This document shows positions 25,394 to 35,101 of a stretch of DNA of 64,000 nucleotides, in pieces. Under the pieces are notes generated by a model. It did not search any database. It was not told the DNA's origin and saw nothing but the letters and a program-made list of their open reading frames with translations. The DNA lies in the NCBI GenBank assembly GCA_934463425.1, contig CAKSJP010000009.1, positions 16,392 through 80,391 of the forward strand, in the 5' to 3' direction. Made by a program: the position numbers and the translations under genes. Source of the stretch: an uncultured Ruminococcus sp. (lineage in GTDB: Bacteria; Bacillota; Clostridia; Oscillospirales; Ruminococcaceae). The first letter of the stretch is position 1; each line of letters starts with the position of its first letter.

Positions 25394-25473
25394 ATATGTT
25401 AAATGAATATCACACATTTCACGGCAGCCGCCCAAGAAGCCGGCTGTCCCGATTCCATTGGGAGGAACTACTT

Positions 25474-26730
25474 TTGGTTTACGTCATACCGATCCTGATT
25501 CTCGTCGCGTTTTCTGCATTGTTTTCCAGTACAGAAACGGCTTTTGCATGTGTCAACAAGATCCGCCTGAAGCACATGGCGGACTCCGGAGACAAGCGCG
25601 CCACAAAGGCGCTGGATATCGCTAACCGCTATGAACAGGCGCTGACCGCCATTCTGGTGGGAAACAACGTGGTGAACATCGGCGCATCCTCACTGGCTAC
25701 CATTTTCTTCACGGCGCATTTCGGCTCAGCCGGTGCAGCCGTCTCCACCGTCGTCATGACCATTCTGGTGCTGACCTTCGGCGAAGTGCTGCCGAAGTCC
25801 TATGCAAAATCCCATGCGGACAAGCTGGCGCTGGCACTGGGCGGATTTCTCTCCAAGTTCACCCTGCTCATGACACCCTTTGTGCTGCTGTTCGGCGTGC
25901 TCTCCCGGGCGTTTGTGTCCAAGGAGGATGCCCCCAGCGTCACAGAGGACGAGCTGAAATACATCATTGACGAAATTGAGGAGGAGGGCGTTCTGGAAGA
26001 ACAGGAGAGCGATCTGGTGATCTCTGCCCTGCAATTCGACGAGACCTCTGTCAGCGAGATCCTGATCCCCCGCGTCCGGATGGTGGCGCTCTCTTCGGAT
26101 GCCACCATTGAAGAAGCCAAGCAGCTGTTCCTGAACAGTCATTTCTCCCGGTTTCCGGTGTATGAAAAGGACATGGACAACATCATCGGCATGATTACCA
26201 ACAAGGACTTTTTCCGGCTTATGTGCGGTGAGTTCGACTCCCTGGCGGAGATCACCCAAAACGTGATCTACGTCCCGGATACCAAGCGCATCAGCGACAT
26301 TCTCCGAGATATGCAGCATGCCAAGACCCATCTCGCCATTGTGGTAGACCAATACGGCGGCACAAAGGGCATGGTCACACTGGAGGACATCATTGAACAG
26401 CTGGTGGGCGAGATCTATGACGAAAGCGATGAGATCGTACATGAATTTCAGAAAACCGCACCCCACACCTACACCGTAGCAGGCACCTTCAGCGTCAGCG
26501 ATCTCTGTGCCGCACTGGACGAAGCTGATGCTCCGGCGAAGGTGCCGGAAACAGAGTGCACCACCATCGGCGGCTGGGTCATGGAGCTGCTGGGACACAT
26601 TCCCGCCGCAGGCGAGACCGTTTCGGACGGCGCGTTCCACTTCACCGTATTAGACGTGGACAACCAGACCATCCACACCATCCGCCTGGAGGTCACTCCG
26701 CCGGAAGAGGCACATCCGGAGGAAAAATGA
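25474..26730 (+). CDS. CNNM/HlyC-CorC family transporter-like protein
   Basis: 418 residues from a TTG start with GGGAGG 9 nt upstream; an earlier ATG at 25396 falls before the predicted transcription start. An N-terminal DUF21/CNNM membrane domain (about 1-165; FSALFSSTETAFACVN, LTAILVGNNVVNIGASSLAT, LTFGEVLPKSYAK), a CBS-pair domain (about 190-310) and a C-terminal CorC_HlyC domain (about 330-410). Family members export magnesium or other divalent cations, or protect from excess of them. It is interesting beside corA, an importer-type gene on the opposite strand, but no shared control was seen. Confidence 0.92.
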   Translation: MVYVIPILILVAFSALFSSTETAFACVNKIRLKHMADSGDKRATKALDIANRYEQALTAILVGNNVVNIGASSLATIFFTAHFGSAGAAVSTVVMTILVLTFGEVLPKSYAKSHADKLALALGGFLSKFTLLMTPFVLLFGVLSRAFVSKEDAPSVTEDELKYIIDEIEEEGVLEEQESDLVISALQFDETSVSEILIPRVRMVALSSDATIEEAKQLFLNSHFSRFPVYEKDMDNIIGMITNKDFFRLMCGEFDSLAEITQNVIYVPDTKRISDILRDMQHAKTHLAIVVDQYGGTKGMVTLEDIIEQLVGEIYDESDEIVHEFQKTAPHTYTVAGTFSVSDLCAALDEADAPAKVPETECTTIGGWVMELLGHIPAAGETVSDGAFHFTVLDVDNQTIHTIRLEVTPPEEAHPEEK

Positions 26731-26737
26731 TCCCATC

Positions 26738-26822
26738 TGGGCGGTGTCAGCATCGCCCTTTTCTTTTTATCATCAGAACAGGCAGCCAGAATCCGTTTCC
26801 GGCTGCCTGTCTTTATTTTTTC
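26738..26822. terminator. Paired terminators between CNNM gene and corA
   Basis: GGGCGgtgtcagcatCGCCC with TTTTCTTTTT (26738-26767) ends the + gene. GGCAGCC...GGCTGCC (26779-26808) with flanking runs can act in both directions between the convergent genes. Confidence 0.75.
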
Positions 26823-27790
26823 TTATATTTAAACAAAATGCATGCCACCATCACGGTCAGCACCAGGGACAGGAGCGTAGGAAACCATGTATGCTGCGCA
26901 AAGGGCAGATCCAGGGTATTCATGCCGTAAAAGCTGTACACCATCGTCGGGATCGCCAGAATGATCGTCACCATAGTCAGCCGCCACATGACGATATTCA
27001 GATTGTTGGAGATGACCGATCCAAACGCATCTACAACGCCGGACAAAATGCCCGAATAGATGCTCGCCATCTCCTGTGCCTGTTTCAGTTCGATCAGCAC
27101 ATCCTCCAGCAGATCCTGATCCTCCTCATAGAGCTTCACCACTCTGCCGCGCAGGATCTTGTTCATCGTCACATCGTTGGATTTCAGAGAAGTGGAAAAG
27201 TAGATCAGGGATTTTTCCAGCTCCAGCATCTGTATCAATTCCTGGTTTTTCATTGCACCGTGCAGTTTCCGCTGCATGGCGCTGGAGGTCTTGTCGATCT
27301 GTTTCAGATAGACCAGAAAGGATGCTGTAATGTTCATCATCAGCCGCAGTACGAACTGTGTCCGGAACTGGGTCTGAATATTCCGCACCCGGCCGCTCAC
27401 CACATCATCGATCACCTTATTTCCCCTTAAAGAAATGGTAAAAACATAATGATCGGTAATGATAATGCCCAGCGGCATGGTGTAGAAAATCAAGGTATCG
27501 TCCTTCTGTACCTCTGACACCGCCGTATCCACAATAATCAGCGTTTGATTTTCTTCCTGTTCCACACGAGAGGACTCCTCTTCATCCAGAGAGGATTTCA
27601 AAAAGTCACTGTCCAATCCGTAGTCATCGATCAGCATTTTCCGTTCCTGTGCCGTAGGATCGACCACGGAGATCCAGCAGCCCGGCGTCAGTGAATCCAC
27701 CTCAATGAGCCGGTTCGCCACTGTTTTGTAATAAGAGACCAAATCGGATACCACCTTTCTGCAAGGCAGCGCCGACCGGTTTAAGGGCAT
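26813..27790 (-). CDS. corA: CorA-family magnesium transporter
   Basis: 325 residues. A soluble alpha/beta N-terminal domain, long stalk helices (about 150-260), then two C-terminal membrane segments (about 262-286 and 300-320) with the selectivity motif YGMN (GMN at 289-291). It forms a pentameric Mg2+ (or Co2+/Ni2+) channel. The ATG at 27790 is chosen because AAGGAAAG stands 5 nt upstream. An in-frame ATG at 27850 has no ribosome site and lies inside a leader ORF that does. The leader's stop (27781-27783) overlaps the corA start region, so translation of the two is likely coupled. Confidence 0.92.
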   Translation of the reverse strand: MPLNRSALPCRKVVSDLVSYYKTVANRLIEVDSLTPGCWISVVDPTAQERKMLIDDYGLDSDFLKSSLDEEESSRVEQEENQTLIIVDTAVSEVQKDDTLIFYTMPLGIIITDHYVFTISLRGNKVIDDVVSGRVRNIQTQFRTQFVLRLMMNITASFLVYLKQIDKTSSAMQRKLHGAMKNQELIQMLELEKSLIYFSTSLKSNDVTMNKILRGRVVKLYEEDQDLLEDVLIELKQAQEMASIYSGILSGVVDAFGSVISNNLNIVMWRLTMVTIILAIPTMVYSFYGMNTLDLPFAQHTWFPTLLSLVLTVMVACILFKYKKK

Positions 27791-27876
27791 CCGCTTTCCT
27801 TGCCTGTATTCCATGTGTTCATCCGTTTGCCATATGCTTTTTCCGGGCATGGCAAGGGATAAGGGTCAGCGTTCAT
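27781..27876 (-). CDS. Proline-rich leader peptide upstream of corA
   Basis: 31 codons from ATG 27876, preceded by the best ribosome site in the region (AGGAGGTG). It begins MNADPYPLPCPEKAYG and ends in Cys-Pro just inside corA, in a different frame. Prolines occupy positions 5, 7, 9 and 11. The MgtL leader of Salmonella/E. coli mgtA, as I recall it, begins MEPDPTPLP, so DPxPLP is shared. MgtL senses low Mg2+ and proline by ribosome stalling or destabilisation on this acidic-proline start. An equivalent role for this corA leader is inference, but position, codon content and target agree. Confidence 0.7.
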   Translation of the reverse strand: MNADPYPLPCPEKAYGKRMNTWNTGKESGCP

Positions 27877-27931: not shown

Positions 27932-27973
27932 ATTATAACAGAAAAAACCGCCCTTGACAAGGCGGTTTTTGTA
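27932..27973 (-). promoter_or_regulatory. corA leader promoter nested in the pflA terminator
   Basis: On the minus strand an ACCGCC/GGGCGGT hairpin with TTTTTT ends the pfl operon. The loop-side TTGTCA (27955-27960) is also a -35, 17 bp before TATAAT (27932-27937). The predicted corA leader is about 49 nt before its ATG. Confidence 0.7.
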
Positions 27974-27995: not shown

Positions 27996-28757
27996 TCACG
28001 GTTTGTGGATCTCTTCCCGGATGCGTTCCCGGATGCCCTCAAAGATCACCTGCTTTGCATGCATCGCCTGTTCCTTGGTTGCTGCCGGAACGCCCTTGAG
28101 CGGATAGTCGATCCCCAGGTTTTCATACTTGACCTCACCCATAGTATGATAGGGCAGCACATCCAGTGCTTTCAGATTATCCAGACCGCCGATAAAGTGT
28201 CCCAGCTGCCGCAGATAATCATCATTCAGGGTGATGCCCGGCACAACCACATGGCGAATCCAGACCGGAATATTTTTTTCCTTCAGATATTCGGCAAATT
28301 CCAGGATATGCTTGTTGCTCTGCTTGGTGAGCTTCTGGTGCTCGGCATCATCAATGTGCTTGATGTCCAGCATCACCAGATCTGTCGCTGCCATAAGCCG
28401 GTCAAACTCCGGGCGGCGCTCCTGGCGGAACAAAATGCCGGAGGTGTCCAGACAGGTGTGGATTCCCTTTTTCTTTGCCGTTTCAAACAGCTCCGTCAAA
28501 AATTCCATCTGCACCAACGGCTCGCCGCCGGTTGCGGTGATGCCGCCGTCATGGAGAAACTCCTTGATGCCGTCATACTCTTTCAACAGAGATTCCACCG
28601 TGCGGAGATTCTCCCGGTTCTGATTGTCGATGGGCCAGGTGTCCGGGTTGTGGCAATAGAGACAGCGCATGGGACAGCCCTGGAAAAAGATCACAAAGCG
28701 AATGCCCGGGCCGTCTACTGTGCCGAAGCTTTCTGTGGAATGAATGTGTCCTTCCAT
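27996..28757 (-). CDS. pflA: Pyruvate formate-lyase activating enzyme
   Basis: 253 residues; a radical-SAM enzyme that abstracts hydrogen from the PFL glycyl residue. The cluster motif CPMRCLYC (Cys28, 32, 35) binds [4Fe-4S] and SAM. Other signatures are GTVDGPGIRFVIFFQGC at the N-terminus, TATGGEPLVQ and LDIKHIDDAEH. The ATG at 28757 has AAAGGAG upstream. It is the last gene of the split-pfl operon; two small hairpins lie in the 125-bp gap before it (GGGCG/CGCCC and GAACGC/GCGTTC), possibly setting its expression level. Confidence 0.96.
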   Translation of the reverse strand: MEGHIHSTESFGTVDGPGIRFVIFFQGCPMRCLYCHNPDTWPIDNQNRENLRTVESLLKEYDGIKEFLHDGGITATGGEPLVQMEFLTELFETAKKKGIHTCLDTSGILFRQERRPEFDRLMAATDLVMLDIKHIDDAEHQKLTKQSNKHILEFAEYLKEKNIPVWIRHVVVPGITLNDDYLRQLGHFIGGLDNLKALDVLPYHTMGEVKYENLGIDYPLKGVPAATKEQAMHAKQVIFEGIRERIREEIHKP

Positions 28758-28882: not shown

Positions 28883-29122
28883 TTACAGAGCAGCGTGGAA
28901 AGTTCTGGTGATAACGTCATCCTGCTGTTCCTTGGTCAGCTTGATGAAGTTAACTGCATAGCCGCTGACACGGATGGTCAGCTGCGGATACTTTTCCGGA
29001 TGTGCCTGTGCGTCCAGCAGAGTCTCACGGTTCAGAACGTTTACGTTCAGGTGATGTCCGCCTTTTTCTGCATAGCCATCCAGCAGGCCTACCAGATTTT
29101 CAATTTGCTTTTCGTTTGCCAT
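28883..29122 (-). CDS. Stand-alone glycyl-radical domain of pyruvate formate-lyase
   Basis: 79 residues corresponding to the C-terminal end of a normal [43 protein letters not shown] and [10 protein letters not shown]. The radical glycine is Gly54 in RVSGYAV. It resembles the spare-part protein GrcA/YfiD, but here it is the only glycyl-radical domain in the operon, because the large protein ends exactly before this region. The ATG at 29122 has AGGAGG upstream. It is therefore likely the radical subunit of a two-piece enzyme, activated by PflA from the neighbouring gene. Confidence 0.93.
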
Positions 29123-29179
29123 GATAAATTCCTCCTTGAGAATTTACAAATCGGGATAAATACCGGGGACGGATGAGAC

Positions 29180-29389
29180 TCACTCGTCCTCTATAAACTC
29201 AGTCGGCTGACAGCAAGCCATGTTCCCCTTCGAGCAATCCATGCTGCGATAGGTCTTCACATTCAAGCCCTCGCCCATGAGGTCGTCCTCTGAGATGGTG
29301 AGATGGCCGCTGCCGTCTTCCATGAGCTTTTCGATCATGTCCACCAGTTCGTCCGACTTGTCCTGTTCTTTGACTTCATGTTCTGCCAT
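29180..29389 (-). CDS. Small acidic protein inside the split-pfl operon, function unknown
   Basis: 69 residues, unrecognised. It has an acidic/charged N-terminal helix (KSDELVDMIEKLMEDGSG), then a short domain ending in a Cys-containing tail (RSMDCSKGNMACCQPTEF) with Cys52, 59 and 60. The ATG at 29389 has GGGAGG 9 nt upstream. It sits 36 bp after the large subunit and 57 bp before the radical subunit, both on the same strand. The position suggests an assembly, protection or docking role for the two halves of the enzyme; that is inference. Confidence 0.75.
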   Translation of the reverse strand: MAEHEVKEQDKSDELVDMIEKLMEDGSGHLTISEDDLMGEGLNVKTYRSMDCSKGNMACCQPTEFIEDE

Positions 29390-29425
29390 GACTCTGCGCC
29401 TCCCTTCCAATCGTCTGATTCAGAC

Positions 29426-31513
29426 TTACTGCTTTTCCATTTCCTCGCGGATGGAAGCAACGTCGATGTCGCCTGCGAATACAGCAGAATCCTTACCCAG
29501 AGCATCCGGGATGATGGTGAAGGTATTGGAGATACCGTCCTGTGCATTCTTCCACGGCAGCTTTGCAACAGATGCCATAGATGCTGCTGCACCGTGAGTG
29601 TCACGGCCGTGCATCGGGTTTGCGCCAGGAGCCAGCGGCTGGCCCTTCTTACGGCCATCCGGAGTGTTACCGGTCTTCTTACCGTATACCACGTTGGAGG
29701 TGATGGTCAGGATAGAAGTGGTCGGAACGCCGCCTCTGTAGCAGTAGTTGCTGCGGATCATATCCATGAACTTGTCCAGGATCTCCACTGCGATGCTGTC
29801 TACGCGGTCGTCGTTGTTGCCGTACTTCGGGAAGTCGCCTTCAATTTCAAAGTCAGTTACTACGCCGAATTCGTCGCGGATGCACTTTACCTTTGCATAC
29901 TTGATCGCAGACAGGGAGTCAGCTACAACGGACATACCGGCGATACCGGTTGCGAAATAACGCTTTACGTCTCTGTCGTGCAGAGCCATCTGGATTGCCT
30001 CATAGCAGTACTTGTCGTGCATGTAGTGGATGCAGTTCAGGGTATCTACGTACAGCTTAGCCAGCCATGCCATCATGTCTGTGTACTTTGCCATAACGTC
30101 ATCATAATCCAGATAATCGCCTTCTACCGGACGATACTTCGGACCAACCTGATTGTGCTTGCCGGTCTTTGCGTCCAGTCTTTCATCCACACCGCCGTTG
30201 ATCGCGTACAGCAGGCACTTTGCCAGGTTTGCACGAGCGCCGAAGAACTGCATTTCCTTACCAACACGCATGGAGGATACGCAGCAGGCGATGGCATAGT
30301 CATCACCGTGTGTCACGCGCATCAGATCATCGTTCTCATACTGGAAGGAAGAGGTGTTGATGGACAGCTTTGCACAGTAGTGCTTGAATGCCTTCGGCAG
30401 TCTCTTGGACCACAGAACAGTCAGGTTCGGCTCCGGAGCAGTGCCCAGGTTTTCCAGGGTGTGCAGATAACGGAAGCTGTTCTTGGTAACCAGTGTTCTG
30501 CCGTCGATGCCCATACCGCCGATAGACTCAGTAACCCACTGCGGGTCGCCGGAGAACAGTGCGTTGTATTCCGGAGTTCTTGCGAACTTGACCATACGCA
30601 GCTTCATGATGAAGTGGTCGATATATTCCTGTGCCTGTTCCTCGGTCAGAGTACCGTTGTCCAGGTCACGCTGAATGTAAATGTCCAGGAATGTGGAGGT
30701 ACGGCCCAGGCTCATTGCTGCACCGTTCTGATCCTTAACAGAGCCCAGATATGCGAAGTAGGTCCACTGGATCGCTTCCTTCGCGGTGGTAGCCGGAGCA
30801 GAGATATCATAGCCATACTTCTTTGCCATGTTCTTCAGTGCCTTCAGAGCCTTGATCTGATCTGCCAGTTCCTCACGCAGACGGATCTTCTCTTCGGTCA
30901 TGGTGCCGGAGGTAACAGCCTTCTGATAGTTCTTGTCCTCGATCAGACGATCTACACCGTACAGAGCAACACGGCGGTAGTCACCGATGATACGGCCGCG
31001 GCCATAAGCATCCGGCAGACCGGTGATGATGGCATTGTGACGAGCTGCACGCATTTCCGGTGTGTAAACATCGAATACGCCCTCGTTATGTGTCTTTCTG
31101 TAGTGTGTGAAGATATAGCTGATCTCCGGATCCACTTCATAGCCATAAGCCTTGCATGCCTCTTCAGCCATACGAATACCGCCGAACGGCTGCAGAGAGC
31201 GCTTCAGCGGCTTGTCAGTCTGCAGACCAACGATGGTCTCCAGATCCTTATCGATGTAACCTGCATCATGAGAATCTACTGTAGAAACCAGCTTGGTATC
31301 CATGTCCAGAACGCCGCCGTTTTCGCGTTCCTTCTGGAACAGATCCATTACTTCGCTCCACAGCTTCTTGGTGGAATCAGTCGGGCCGGCCAGAAAGCTT
31401 TCGTCACCCTCATACGGAGTATAGTTCTTCTGGATAAAGTCACGGACGTCGATGGTCTTTTCCCATGCGCCGCCAACGAAGCCTTCCCATGCCTTTGCCA
31501 TTGTCTCTGCCAT
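29426..31513 (-). CDS. pflB: Pyruvate formate-lyase catalytic subunit lacking the glycyl-radical domain
   Basis: 695 residues. Converts pyruvate and CoA to acetyl-CoA and formate. The barrel is complete, with the catalytic Cys410-Cys411 pair ([13 protein letters not shown]) and [20 protein letters not shown] near 600. The protein stops at SIREEMEKQ, just after [11 protein letters not shown]. The C-terminal ~70 residues with RVSGYAV are missing and are encoded by a separate gene 300 bp downstream. The ATG at 31513 follows GGGGAG. A minus-strand promoter TTGACA-17-TATTAT is at 31655-31683. A sequencing error is unlikely because an intact gene with its own ribosome site lies between the parts. 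Confidence 0.95.
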
Positions 31514-31654: not shown

Positions 31655-31683
31655 ATAATATCACATCTCAACTATGATGTCAA
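31655..31683 (-). promoter_or_regulatory. Promoter of the pfl operon
   Basis: TTGACA (31678-31683), 17 bp, TATTAT (31655-31660) on the minus strand, giving a leader of about 135 nt. No clear Rex or FNR dyad was found in this gap (31514-31887). Confidence 0.75.
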
Positions 31684-31887: not shown

Positions 31888-32748
31888 ATGTTACAGCTTT
31901 CTCCCCGCAGTACCATTGCACTGGTGGGCAGTTCCGACGGGCTGCCCGGGGACAGTGATACGGTTTCGCGTCTTTGTGCTGTTCTGGAATCACTGGGACT
32001 GCACACCGTGATTTTTCCATCCCTATACCAGACTGCTGCCGGCAGGCCGCAGCCGGCAGAACGGCGCGCCGCGGACATACAAGCTGCGTTTGCAGACCCG
32101 GAAGTGGATGCTTTATTCGATCTGACCGGCGGTGACGCAGCAAATGCCATTCTGCCCCATCTCGATTTTAAAGAGATCGCCAGATGCTCAAAGCCCTTTT
32201 TTGGGTACAGCGACGTCTCGGTTCTGCTCAATCCGCTGCAGGATTTCGGAGACGTTCCGGTGTTTTATTTGCAGGCGCGCTTTCTGGCAAGCTGTTCCGC
32301 CGCCAAAGAACGGTTTGCGCGCTGGATACAGCAGCAGGACGATGCCCTGTTTCGATTTCACTATGCCTTTTTGCAGGGCAGCTCGCTCTCCGGAAGGGTC
32401 TGCGGCGGCAATATCCGCTGCACGCTGAAGCTCACCGGCACACCGTGGCAGCCAGATCCCACGGGACGGGTACTGTTTCTGGAGAGTTATTCCGGCAGTT
32501 TTGCTCGAATGGAGACGATGCTGCACCAATACCGGCAAATGGAAATGTTCTCCCGATGCAGCGGCGTGTTGCTGGGGAACTTTTCGGAACTGGCGGAAAA
32601 GCAGCAGCTCCCGACGCTGTACCGGTTGGTGCAGGACATCATAGACGATCCTGCGCTGCCCATTGCCGTGACCACAGAATTGGGGCATCAGCCGGAGGCG
32701 CATTGTCTGGCATACGAGGGGATCCGCTTAGAAGGATCGCAGCTGTAG
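31888..32748 (+). CDS. Peptidase S66 (LD-carboxypeptidase / MccF-like)
   Basis: 286 residues. The family order is visible: IALVGSSDG at the N-terminus, ADPEVDALFDLTGGDAAN, PFFGYSDVSVLLN with the nucleophile Ser in GYSD (about residue 109), FLESYSG in the position of the catalytic Glu region, and TELGHQPEAH with the C-terminal His. S66 enzymes trim the terminal D-Ala from muropeptides in the cytoplasm or detoxify microcin C. Substrate is undecided. ACGGAGG precedes the ATG. It ends 21 bp inside the convergent transporter gene. Confidence 0.88.
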   Translation: MLQLSPRSTIALVGSSDGLPGDSDTVSRLCAVLESLGLHTVIFPSLYQTAAGRPQPAERRAADIQAAFADPEVDALFDLTGGDAANAILPHLDFKEIARCSKPFFGYSDVSVLLNPLQDFGDVPVFYLQARFLASCSAAKERFARWIQQQDDALFRFHYAFLQGSSLSGRVCGGNIRCTLKLTGTPWQPDPTGRVLFLESYSGSFARMETMLHQYRQMEMFSRCSGVLLGNFSELAEKQQLPTLYRLVQDIIDDPALPIAVTTELGHQPEAHCLAYEGIRLEGSQL

Positions 32749-33849
32749 CCAACCCACTGCCAGCAAAATCGCCAGCATCCCGAAATTCACAGCAGAAAAA
32801 ATGCCCAGATATTTTCCCGGACGGGAATGCACTGCCCTACTGTAAAACTGATAGGAGATCAGACTCGCCAGAGATGCGATAGGCGTTCCAAGGCCGCCCA
32901 GATTCACGCCCAGCAGCAGTGCCTTTGCATTTTCTGTAAAGCCGGACAGCATCACCGCCGCCGGCACATTGCTGATACACTGCGAAAGCGCTGCCGAGAC
33001 CCACAGTTCCCTGCCCTGCATCACGCCGGCAAAGAAATCCCGAACCACATCGACCCGTGCAATATTGCCCACGAACACGAAAAAGCAGACAAATGTCCCC
33101 AGGAGACAGTAATCTGCCTGGGCAAAGAGCTTTTTGTCACAGAGAAATACCAGTACAGCAGTCAGCAGAAGGCAGAGCCAGTCCGGAAGCACCCGGAACA
33201 CAGTCAACAGACACGCCAGAAACAGCAGCAGATATACCGCCGCCGGCTTTTTCGGTATGGCAGACGAAGCCGTTTCCACAGGTTTTCCGGCGCAGGGCGT
33301 TTTCGGCAGCAGGAACGACAGTCCCAGAAGGATCAGCCAGCTCAGCACGCCGGCGGGGAGCATGGTACGAAAGAAGTCTGCGGTATGCAGCTGATACGCC
33401 GCATAGAGGTACAGGTTCTGAGGATTGCCTACCGGTGTCATCATGCTGCCCAGATTGGCGGCGGCTGTCTCCAGAACAATGACCCAGATGCGGCTTTTCT
33501 CATCCCCGATTTCCCGGAACAGCAGCAGTGTCAGCGGCACAAAAGTGAGCAGCGCCACATCATTGGTCACCAGCATTGCGCTGAAAAAACAAAGCTGAAC
33601 GAGGAACATTCCCACACGCCGCACCGTCCCGGCACGTTTCAACAAGTTTTGCGTCACCTGTTCAAACACGCCGATGCTGCGCAGTCCTGCCACCGTGAGC
33701 ATCAGACAAAACAGCTGGATCAGCACAGCCCGGTTGCAGTAGGACAAATAGCCGGCATCCGGCGGCACAAAGCACATGGACACCAGCGCCGCCAAAAGCG
33801 AGATCCCCAGCACCGGCTGTCCTTTCCACCATTGCAAAAAACGTTTCAT
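32728..33849 (-). CDS. SLC13/ArsB-type ion transporter
   Basis: 373 residues and about ten to eleven membrane segments. Two inverted-repeat hairpins typical of the ion-transporter superfamily are visible: TNDVALLTFVPLTLLLF and SQCISNVPAAVMLSGF. TPVGNPQNLYLY and GGLGTPIASLASL are the matching substrate loops. The family covers dicarboxylate, citrate, arsenite and Na+/H+ carriers; the cargo is not decided. The ATG at 33849 follows AAAGGAG; the frame could open earlier but without a ribosome site. Confidence 0.85.
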   Translation of the reverse strand: MKRFLQWWKGQPVLGISLLAALVSMCFVPPDAGYLSYCNRAVLIQLFCLMLTVAGLRSIGVFEQVTQNLLKRAGTVRRVGMFLVQLCFFSAMLVTNDVALLTFVPLTLLLFREIGDEKSRIWVIVLETAAANLGSMMTPVGNPQNLYLYAAYQLHTADFFRTMLPAGVLSWLILLGLSFLLPKTPCAGKPVETASSAIPKKPAAVYLLLFLACLLTVFRVLPDWLCLLLTAVLVFLCDKKLFAQADYCLLGTFVCFFVFVGNIARVDVVRDFFAGVMQGRELWVSAALSQCISNVPAAVMLSGFTENAKALLLGVNLGGLGTPIASLASLISYQFYSRAVHSRPGKYLGIFSAVNFGMLAILLAVGWLQLRSF

Positions 33850-34015
33850 TGATACATTCTCCTTTTCTGTTACGTTCTGCATATTTTCCAGTATAACACT
33901 TTTCCGGGAAAAGTCAAACGCTCCTGTCAGATGATTTTCCACATTTCCTTGACTTTTCCCCCGTTCTCGTTTATACTGAATATAATATATCAGATTCTAG
34001 GAAAAAGGTGATTGT

Positions 34016-35101
34016 ATGAAAAAAGCCCTGATCGCCATGAGCGGCGGTGTAGACAGCTCCGTGGCTGCGCTTCTGATGCAGCAGAAAGGCTATGAATGCG
34101 TCGGCGCGACCATGAAGCTGTTTGAGAACGAACAGGCAGGGGTCAAGCGGGAAAAAACCTGCTGCTCTCTGGATGATGTGGAGGACGCACGGAGCGTGGC
34201 ATACCGGCTGCACATGCCCTATTATGTTTTCAACTTTACGGCGAACTTTGAAAAAGAGGTCATGGACCGGTTTGTCCATGCCTATGAAAACGGCTGTACG
34301 CCAAACCCCTGCATCGACTGCAACCGCTACCTGAAATTCGAGAAGCTGTACCAGAGAATGCAGGAAATGCAGATGGACACCATTGTCACCGGCCACTATG
34401 CCAGAGTTGCATACGATGAAGTCTCCGGGCGCTATCTGCTGAAAAAGGGTCTGGACGGCAGCAAGGATCAGAGCTATGTGCTGTACAACCTGACCCAGGA
34501 GCAGCTGGCGCACACCCAGTTCCCCGTGGGCGAGCTTTCCAAGCACCAGGTGCGGGAGATCGCCGAGGAATACGGCTTTCTCAATGCAGACAAGCCGGAC
34601 AGCCAGGACATCTGCTTTGTCCCCGACGGCGACTATGCCGGATTCATTGAACGATACACGGGAAAATCGCCGGAAACCGGTGCATTCCTCGACCCGGCAG
34701 GCAACCGGATCGGCACACACCGCGGCGTGATCCACTATACCATCGGACAGCGAAAAGGACTGGGCATCTCTGCACCCCATCCGCTGTACGTCTGCGGCAT
34801 CTGTCCGGCGGACAACACCGTCACCCTGGGCTACAGCGAGAACCTGTTTTCCCGAAAGCTCACTGCATCGGATGTCAATCTCATCTCCTGCGACAGCATC
34901 GAAACGCCCATACGCATTCAGGCAAAGATCCGCTATCGTCATCCGGCGCAGCCTGCCACCGCATGGATGACACCGGACGGCACGCTTCATGTGGAATTTG
35001 ACGAGCCCCAGCGCGCCGTCACCTGCGGCCAGGCAGTTGTCCTCTATGACGGAGATACCGTTGTGGGCGGCGGCAGGATCTCCGGCGCAGCAAAGGACTG
35101 A
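34016..35101 (+). CDS. mnmA: tRNA-uridine 2-sulfurtransferase
   Basis: 361 residues. Thiolates U34 of tRNA-Lys, -Glu and -Gln using ATP and a sulfur relay. The PP-loop SGGVDSSVAALL is at the N-terminus; the catalytic cysteines are in NPCIDCNRYLKF (about Cys100) and DSQDICFV (about Cys200). The ATG at 34016 follows AAAGGTGA. The next gene is an Rrf2 regulator with cluster-type cysteines, consistent with the usual link between MnmA, cysteine desulfurase and iron-sulfur control, although no iscS is present here. Confidence 0.97.
   Translation: MKKALIAMSGGVDSSVAALLMQQKGYECVGATMKLFENEQAGVKREKTCCSLDDVEDARSVAYRLHMPYYVFNFTANFEKEVMDRFVHAYENGCTPNPCIDCNRYLKFEKLYQRMQEMQMDTIVTGHYARVAYDEVSGRYLLKKGLDGSKDQSYVLYNLTQEQLAHTQFPVGELSKHQVREIAEEYGFLNADKPDSQDICFVPDGDYAGFIERYTGKSPETGAFLDPAGNRIGTHRGVIHYTIGQRKGLGISAPHPLYVCGICPADNTVTLGYSENLFSRKLTASDVNLISCDSIETPIRIQAKIRYRHPAQPATAWMTPDGTLHVEFDEPQRAVTCGQAVVLYDGDTVVGGGRISGAAKD

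What the first reader, a model, noticed from the sequence alone, without database searches (positions are those of the whole stretch)
28883..31513. Pyruvate formate-lyase encoded as two separate proteins
The 695-residue catalytic protein (Cys410-Cys411 present) ends after [11 protein letters not shown] and has no RVSGYAV glycyl-radical motif. A separate 79-residue gene encodes exactly that missing end (Gly54). In E. coli, GrcA/YfiD serves only as a spare part for damaged full-length PFL; here no full-length enzyme is visible in the operon, so the two-piece form appears to be the working enzyme. A split would let an oxygen-cleaved radical piece be replaced cheaply.
Basis: partly seen in the sequence, partly recalled or inferred. 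Interest (0 to 1): 0.85.

Follow-up and report, generated by a model that had tools for sequence, protein, structure and literature searches.

The report
Split pyruvate formate-lyase with third gene
A central fermentation enzyme usually made as one long protein is made here, and in many gut bacteria, as a catalytic piece plus a tiny radical-carrying piece, with an unnamed third small protein bearing a conserved cysteine pair encoded between them.

Summary
The 695-residue protein aligns to E. coli PFL residues 5-680 and the 79-residue protein to 681-756. It is not a sequencing error: in 77 of the 80 nearest loci a separate radical gene follows the truncated catalytic gene. In 29 of 30 such genomes no full-length PFL was found; the window's own genome is not held. 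Split-type genes make up 25 of 28 PFL-bearing Coriobacteriia but only 2 of 118 in a phylum-wide draw. Over 182 locus readings the cysteines are on this protein only (96), on the catalytic tail only (80), on both (1) or on neither (5). The small piece has an NCBI name (GrcA3) and two recent PDB chains lack a radical domain, so the split may already be under study. The middle protein is unannotated; its role, perhaps a docked dithiol, is inferred.

The parts
31655..31683 (-). promoter-like site TTGACA-17-TATTAT, TG before the second hexamer
   Evidence: 11 of 12 consensus matches; a consensus match only (11 sites found in 4.3 kb, 4.1 expected)
29426..31513 (-). catalytic subunit of split PFL, 695 aa, without glycyl radical domain
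   Evidence: TIGR01255 positions 1-665 of 744; Cys410-Cys411; aligns to E. coli PFL 5-680
29180..29389 (-). middle protein, 69 aa: GrcA3-like helix and strand, no glycine loop, tail DCSKGNMACCQPTEFIEDE
   Evidence: conserved family, homologous to the first half of GrcA3, pN/pS 0.128 against L095; ribosome-binding-like GGAAGGGAGG upstream (read)
28883..29122 (-). GrcA3 radical subunit, 79 aa, Gly54 in RVSGYAV
   Evidence: NF038360 above cut-off; aligns to E. coli PFL 681-756; AAGGAGG upstream (read)
27996..28757 (-). PflA activating enzyme, 253 aa
   Evidence: TIGR02493, 293.5 bits, cut-off 231.75
27943..27970 (-). terminator-like hairpin after pflA, 12 pairs
   Evidence: a consensus match only (8 sites found, 4.4 expected)

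Best explanation
This is a naturally split pyruvate formate-lyase operon: catalytic subunit, middle protein, GrcA3 radical subunit, activase. SHOWN by sequence: the catalytic and radical pieces together cover a whole PFL with the break at E. coli residue 680/681; the split is conserved in several phyla and is usually the only PFL-I found in its genome; a cysteine-pair peptide nearly always goes with it, either at the C-terminus of the catalytic subunit or on a separate small protein that copies the helix and strand of GrcA3 but not its glycine loop. INFERRED, likely: GrcA3 supplies the missing barrel strand (HLNVNV), receives the radical on Gly54 from PflA and passes it to Cys410/411. INFERRED, less sure (about 35%): the middle protein docks in the same slot when GrcA3 is absent, spent or out for activation, and its cysteine pair keeps or returns the active-site cysteines reduced, or quenches a stranded thiyl radical. 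In lineages without a middle protein the same kind of peptide is tethered to the catalytic subunit.
For: The two pieces align to E. coli PFL 5-680 and 681-756. 77 of 80 nearest loci have an adjacent separate GrcA3, with TAA, TAG or TGA ending the large gene (58, 12, 10 of 80). 29 of 30 genomes have no other PFL1 over cut-off. The window's C410, C411, R174, W326 and R427, which align with E. coli C418, C419, R176, W333 and R435 (their role recalled), are invariant in 33 of 33 aligned rows. Middle against GrcA3: hhalign probability 95.7, E 8.6e-9 over 31 columns. Full middle hits: 18 of 24 split genomes and 0 of the other 124 in one family; 29 of 55 printed split genomes and 0 of 87 printed full-only genomes in another. 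Cysteine placement over 182 readings: middle only 96, tail only 80, both 1, neither 5. The 15 full-length controls have no cysteine between ALGK/ALGH and LDGY. A truncated E. coli PFL is active with YfiD once activated (PMC8683613, passages).
Against: No experiment and no complex model. The window's own genome is not held. Three genomes carry both split and full-length PFL: G005, G511 and G558. Five of 182 readings have neither a middle gene nor tail cysteines (L008, L060, L065, L178, L181), so the cysteine pair is not indispensable, and L196 has both. After allowing for kinship the exclusivity rests on 4 well-supported pairs (p 0.125). BLASTP of the window's middle protein against GrcA3 finds nothing (E 0.43). 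The AlphaFold model of the middle protein is poor (pLDDT 57), and in the natural fusion the cysteine linker is unmodelled. 17 of 54 distinct tails do not fit even the looser pattern C-x(1,7)-C-x(1,3)-P.
Confidence: 0.7

Rival explanations
1. The middle protein (or tail) is a recruitment and activation factor rather than a redox arm: it supplies in trans the duplicate strand that cleaved E. coli PFL keeps (residues 696-733) and that YfiD needs for binding and radical installation.
For: In E. coli, loss of residues 696-733, described as a duplicate of YfiD's strand, lowers radical installation 32-fold (PMC8683613, passages). The middle protein carries the matching helix and strand.
Against: 80 of 182 readings have only the cysteine tail and no middle gene; what is kept throughout is the cysteines, not the strand.
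Confidence: 0.25
2. The cysteine peptide binds a metal ion or iron-sulfur cluster and is a structural or gating subunit, as the small subunits of benzylsuccinate synthase and 4-hydroxyphenylacetate decarboxylase are.
For: Those relatives carry 7-10 kDa [4Fe-4S] accessory subunits, and the beta subunit of benzylsuccinate synthase regulates thiyl radical formation (PMC12590467, passages). Some tails are CC or CxC.
Against: Usually only two or three cysteines per chain; two are conserved in the middle family; no PDB relative found by profile.
Confidence: 0.15
3. GrcA3 is only a spare part, as in E. coli, and a full-length PFL does the main work.
For: NCBI names the small protein an autonomous glycyl radical cofactor. 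G005, G511 and G558 have both forms.
Against: 29 of 30 split genomes gave no full-length PFL1, and the catalytic gene itself lacks the radical domain in the 80 nearest loci.
Confidence: 0.05
4. Pseudogene or sequencing error.
For: A broken PFL would also give two pieces.
Against: All three genes under purifying selection between the window and L095, ribosome-binding-like sites upstream, same layout in many lineages.
Confidence: 0.01

Closest known systems
Canonical PFL-I / PflB (E. coli 1h16; TIGR01255)
   Same: Sequence along the whole length, catalytic cysteine pair, RVSGYAV radical motif, pflA in the operon.
   Different: Two polypeptides broken at residue 680/681, a new tail on the catalytic chain, an extra small gene.
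GrcA/YfiD spare part (TIGR04365) and GrcA2 (NF008341)
   Same: A free glycyl radical domain.
   Different: Below the cut-offs of both models (99.9 of 170; 108 of 145 bits); 79 residues without YfiD's long disordered N-terminus; partner catalytic gene has no radical domain of its own.
GrcA3 (NCBIfam NF038360)
   Same: The 79-aa protein is over its cut-off.
   Different: The model covers the small piece only; I have not seen what NCBI writes about its partner.
PDB 38la and 38lb, 'Formate acetyltransferase'
   Same: Chains of 687 and 739 residues aligned to the end of the catalytic piece with no room for a radical domain; 38lb has GECDMC after the GK motif.
   Different: Title, organism and paper not seen; 38la might be a cut construct. 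No GrcA3-like chain of theirs was among the PDB hits of the small protein.
Accessory subunits of benzylsuccinate synthase and 4-hydroxyphenylacetate decarboxylase
   Same: Small extra subunits of a glycyl radical enzyme (PMC12590467, passages).
   Different: Those bind [4Fe-4S] clusters; the middle protein resembles the radical domain itself.
C-terminal cysteine pair of ribonucleotide reductases; split class II reductase of Pseudomonas aeruginosa
   Same: Works like: a mobile cysteine pair serving the active site of a radical enzyme (PMC5704485, abstract start in the listing), and a radical enzyme in two pieces (PMC4520616, listing only).
   Different: No homology tested; PFL turnover needs no electrons (recalled).

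Membership tests
PFL-I (TIGR01255) | score over the curated cut-off | tested here: met
   large chain 1105 bits, cut-off 994.2
PFL-I (TIGR01255) | adjacent catalytic cysteine pair | tested here: met
   C410-C411 align with E. coli C418-C419; invariant in 33 of 33 rows
PFL-I (TIGR01255) | glycyl radical domain in the same polypeptide | tested here: not met
   no RVSGYA motif; profile ends at 665 of 744; the domain is encoded separately
PFL-I (TIGR01255) | pyruvate cleavage to formate and acetyl-CoA | not testable with these tools
   needs enzyme assay
GrcA3 (NF038360) | score over the curated cut-off | tested here: met
   164.6 bits, cut-off 158
GrcA/YfiD spare part (TIGR04365) | score over the curated cut-off | tested here: not met
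   99.9 bits, cut-off 170
GrcA/YfiD spare part (TIGR04365) | works beside a full-length PFL in the same genome | tested here: not met
   relatives only: 29 of 30 split genomes gave no full-length PFL1; the window's genome is not held
Glycyl radical domain family (for the middle protein) | homology to the domain's first helix and strand | tested here: met
   hhalign against GrcA3, probability 95.7, E 8.6e-9, 31 columns
Glycyl radical domain family (for the middle protein) | radical glycine loop RVSGYA | tested here: not met
   absent from the 44 aligned middle proteins and from the 47 listed
Iron-sulfur accessory subunits (BSS beta/gamma, HPAD small subunit) | four cluster ligands and HiPIP-like fold | tested here: inconclusive
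   two cysteines conserved in the middle family; no such PDB relative by profile; structure model too poor to search

The most novel reading that the evidence does not exclude
Split PFL is a three-part radical enzyme: a catalytic shell, a detachable radical cartridge (GrcA3) and a radical-free mimic of that cartridge which docks in the same slot and carries a redox-active cysteine pair. The mimic makes safe or re-arms the active site while the radical cartridge is out, and its active peptide can move between genes, ending up on the catalytic chain in other lineages.
Probability: 0.35. Interest if true: 0.85.

Novelty: new variant of a known kind. Interest (0 to 1): 0.72.

Why it matters
PFL is a main route of pyruvate breakdown in gut fermenters and a model radical enzyme (recalled). 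A paper of October 2025 still says that current data indicate most glycyl radical enzymes, PFL included, to be homodimers of one polypeptide, and that further accessory subunits may await annotation (PMC12590467, passages). A naturally detachable radical subunit with a conserved cysteine-bearing companion would make it directly testable how strict anaerobes protect, replace or switch off a glycyl radical, and would mean that many genes now filed as PflB, GrcA and hypothetical protein are parts of one enzyme.

Full report
What is in the window. On the minus strand lie four genes in order: a 695-residue PFL catalytic chain (31513-29426), a 69-residue protein (29389-29180), a 79-residue glycyl radical protein (29122-28883) and a 253-residue activase, pflA (28757-27996). 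A promoter-like site precedes the first gene and a 12-pair terminator-like hairpin follows the last (consensus matches only). The middle gene was not mentioned.

One enzyme cut once. Against E. coli PFL (1h16) the large chain aligns to residues 5-680 and the small to 681-756. By NCBIfam the large is PFL-I above cut-off from 665 of 744 profile positions, and the small is GrcA3 above cut-off. The cysteine pair and the residues that align with E. coli R176, W333 and R435 (active-site roles recalled) are invariant in 33 of 33 aligned catalytic chains. RVSGYAV is invariant in 49 of 49 aligned small proteins.

Not an error, and not rare. The best 80 loci kept by a capped search of the genome collection all have a large gene without a radical domain. 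In 77 of 80 a GrcA3 gene follows; in L038 it is on another contig of the same genome (G018), and L030 and L035 end at contig edges 63 and 231 nt after the large gene. The large genes end in TAA, TAG or TGA (58, 12, 10 of 80). In 30 genomes behind these loci a PFL-I search found the split large chain in 30 and a full-length PFL over cut-off in one, Claveliimonas bilis. These 30 are of mixed completeness, which the tool did not report.

How widespread. Surveys were read by profile coverage, which cannot tell a split from a rare fusion such as L103. Class of G023 (Coriobacteriia): 25 of 28 PFL-I genomes have the signature; 23 of the 25 were read in DNA and are split, and the other two are the genomes of L027 and L060. 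Family of R. bicirculans (G010): 25 of 88 genomes over cut-off, of which 24 are split and one is fused when read. Family of Lacrimispora amygdalina (G019): at least 55 of 178 (only the best 150 rows were printed). Order of Massilimicrobiota (G008): 26 of 66 matching genomes, 16 of these 26 read in DNA and split. Class of the gastranaerophilal L038 (G018): 2 of 60 genomes have a PFL-I and both are split-type. Against this, in 398 genomes drawn from the phylum of R. bicirculans only 2 of 118 over cut-off are.

Descent. In a tree of 79 catalytic chains (79 chosen of those in hand; quick method, SH-aLRT support only) the 63 split rows and the fused L103 form one side of a 100-support branch against 15 full-length rows. 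One origin is thus compatible with the data, but the full-length sample is small and the root is not inferred. L103 (genome G793), a natural fusion of 788 residues from its first ATG, lies inside the split group with moderate support (83-89) and a long branch. The window's nearest row is L095 (92% identity), from genome G699 in the family of R. bicirculans.

The middle protein. Its relatives share I-D-D-L-V-x-M-L-D...G-x-G-H-x-N-V-x-V and then a tail with C...AC-x-[VI]-P-T. A profile-profile comparison aligns its first half to the first half of GrcA3 (probability 95.7, E 8.6e-9, 31 columns), and the middle profile picks up GrcA3 N-termini in genomes. The radical loop is missing and the cysteine tail stands in its place. 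It behaves like a real gene: pN/pS is 0.128 between the window and L095, against 0.085 for the large and 0.045 for the small subunit (synonymous sites of the middle gene are saturated). It has no NCBIfam family and no credible Pfam match. A profile search of the protein collection gave 2610 hits, of which 120 were listed; none of the 120 shows a precomputed Pfam domain, and the few with a name are called hypothetical protein. Some of the weaker hits may be GrcA3 itself.

Who has it. In the family of R. bicirculans, hits reaching the cysteine tail occur in 18 of 148 genomes, all 18 among the 24 split ones (Fisher 2.2e-18). In the family of L. amygdalina 65 of 250 genomes have a hit: 29 of the 55 split genomes printed, 0 of the 87 genomes printed with full-length PFL only, and 36 whose PFL row was not printed or that had no match (Fisher 2.6e-15). 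In a separate check, 9 genomes whose catalytic chain has the cysteine tail (L003, L009, L022, L035, L038, L054, L066, L071, L076) gave no hit reaching the middle protein's tail anywhere. These tests ignore kinship.

The cysteine pair moves. Loci without a middle gene mostly have cysteines at the end of the catalytic chain (for example CANMACNIPNIEESIDREPEL in L125), and loci with a middle gene have none there, save one. First 80 loci: 50 middle, 26 tail, 3 neither (L008, L060, L065), and L030 with its middle gene on another contig. Family of R. bicirculans, 24 split genomes: 18 middle (one, G782, on a different contig from the catalytic gene), 6 tail. Thirty-eight loci from the L. amygdalina family, chosen for presence (14) or absence (24) of a middle hit: the 14 have no tail cysteine and the 24 have at least two. 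Forty more, mainly Coriobacteriia and the order of G008: 13 middle, 24 tail, 1 both (L196), 2 neither (L178, L181). Sum: 96, 80, 1 and 5 of 182 (Fisher 2.6e-44, kinship ignored). On the tree the state changes about 12 times, but well-supported branches force only 4 or 5, and the independent-pairs test has just 4 pairs: on average 3.6 go the opposite way, 0.4 do not differ, none goes the same way, p 0.125. So the rule is strong in counts and consistent on the tree, without formal significance once kinship is allowed for. The pattern C-x(2,7)-C..P[NT] fits 47 of 47 middle proteins and 30 of 54 distinct tails; 17 tails do not fit a looser pattern either and hold mainly CC, CxC or CxxC. The 15 full-length controls have no cysteine between ALGK or ALGH and LDGY. 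The fused L103 has GCDNC in its linker.

How it most likely works. In E. coli a PFL cut at 695 is active with YfiD once a radical is installed (kcat 121 +/- 25 against 105 +/- 7 per s), but installation is 32-fold lower than when residues 696-733, said to contain a duplicate of YfiD's strand, are kept (PMC8683613, passages). A split enzyme is thus plausible chemistry that may need help with assembly or activation. GrcA3 should add the missing barrel strand and the radical loop. The middle protein has the same helix and strand, so it can be expected to compete for, or prepare, the same slot; what it brings there is a cysteine pair. Because 80 of 182 readings have only the cysteine peptide, tethered to the catalytic chain, I take the cysteines as the working part. 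I propose a dithiol that keeps the active-site pair reduced, or quenches a stranded thiyl radical, while the radical subunit is away, in the manner of the C-terminal cysteine pair of ribonucleotide reductases (PMC5704485, abstract start in a listing). A pure recruitment role and a metal site remain open. Binding, docking and redox activity are all inferred.

Known or new. The small protein is already a named NCBI family. The PDB holds two PFL chains, 38la (687 residues) and 38lb (739 residues, with GECDMC after the GK motif), whose length leaves no room for a radical domain after the aligned part. They do not appear in the rows of a structure library ending 2026-04-08, so someone may already be describing the split. 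In the open-licence library no paper was found with six split, two-subunit, heteromeric or two-component wordings or with the name GrcA3. I rate the system a new variant of a known kind; the middle protein and its relocating cysteine peptide are the newest part.

Limits.

Noticed in passing
L103 (genome G793), 9-2372: A natural fusion of the split type: catalytic chain, a linker with GCDNC, then the radical domain, in one 788-residue reading frame. It lies inside the split group of the tree with moderate support.
   Followed up: partly
L071 and its genome G027 (Olsenella phocaeensis); genome G029 (L075): A second stand-alone GrcA3 gene: two copies on L071, about 5 kb apart, and a further copy far from the operon in G029. 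They may be true spare parts.
   Followed up: no
L008, L060, L065, L178, L181: Split systems with neither a middle gene nor tail cysteines; L060 and L065 are Collinsella and L178 has the same tail. How they manage without the cysteine pair is unexplained.
   Followed up: partly
L196 (genome G977): The one locus read with both a middle gene and a short CGC tail on the catalytic chain; it may be an intermediate.
   Followed up: no
G940:C5:39495-41735 and G965:C11:36239-38479: Full-length PFL genes in the order of G008 with one in-frame TAG inside the match: error, pseudogene or recoding.
   Followed up: no
window 25396-27850 and 31888-35101: Neighbours look ordinary: a CorC/CNNM-like membrane protein, a CorA-like transporter, a muramoyltetrapeptide-carboxypeptidase-like protein and MnmA; of these only MnmA is over its NCBIfam cut-off.
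   Followed up: no
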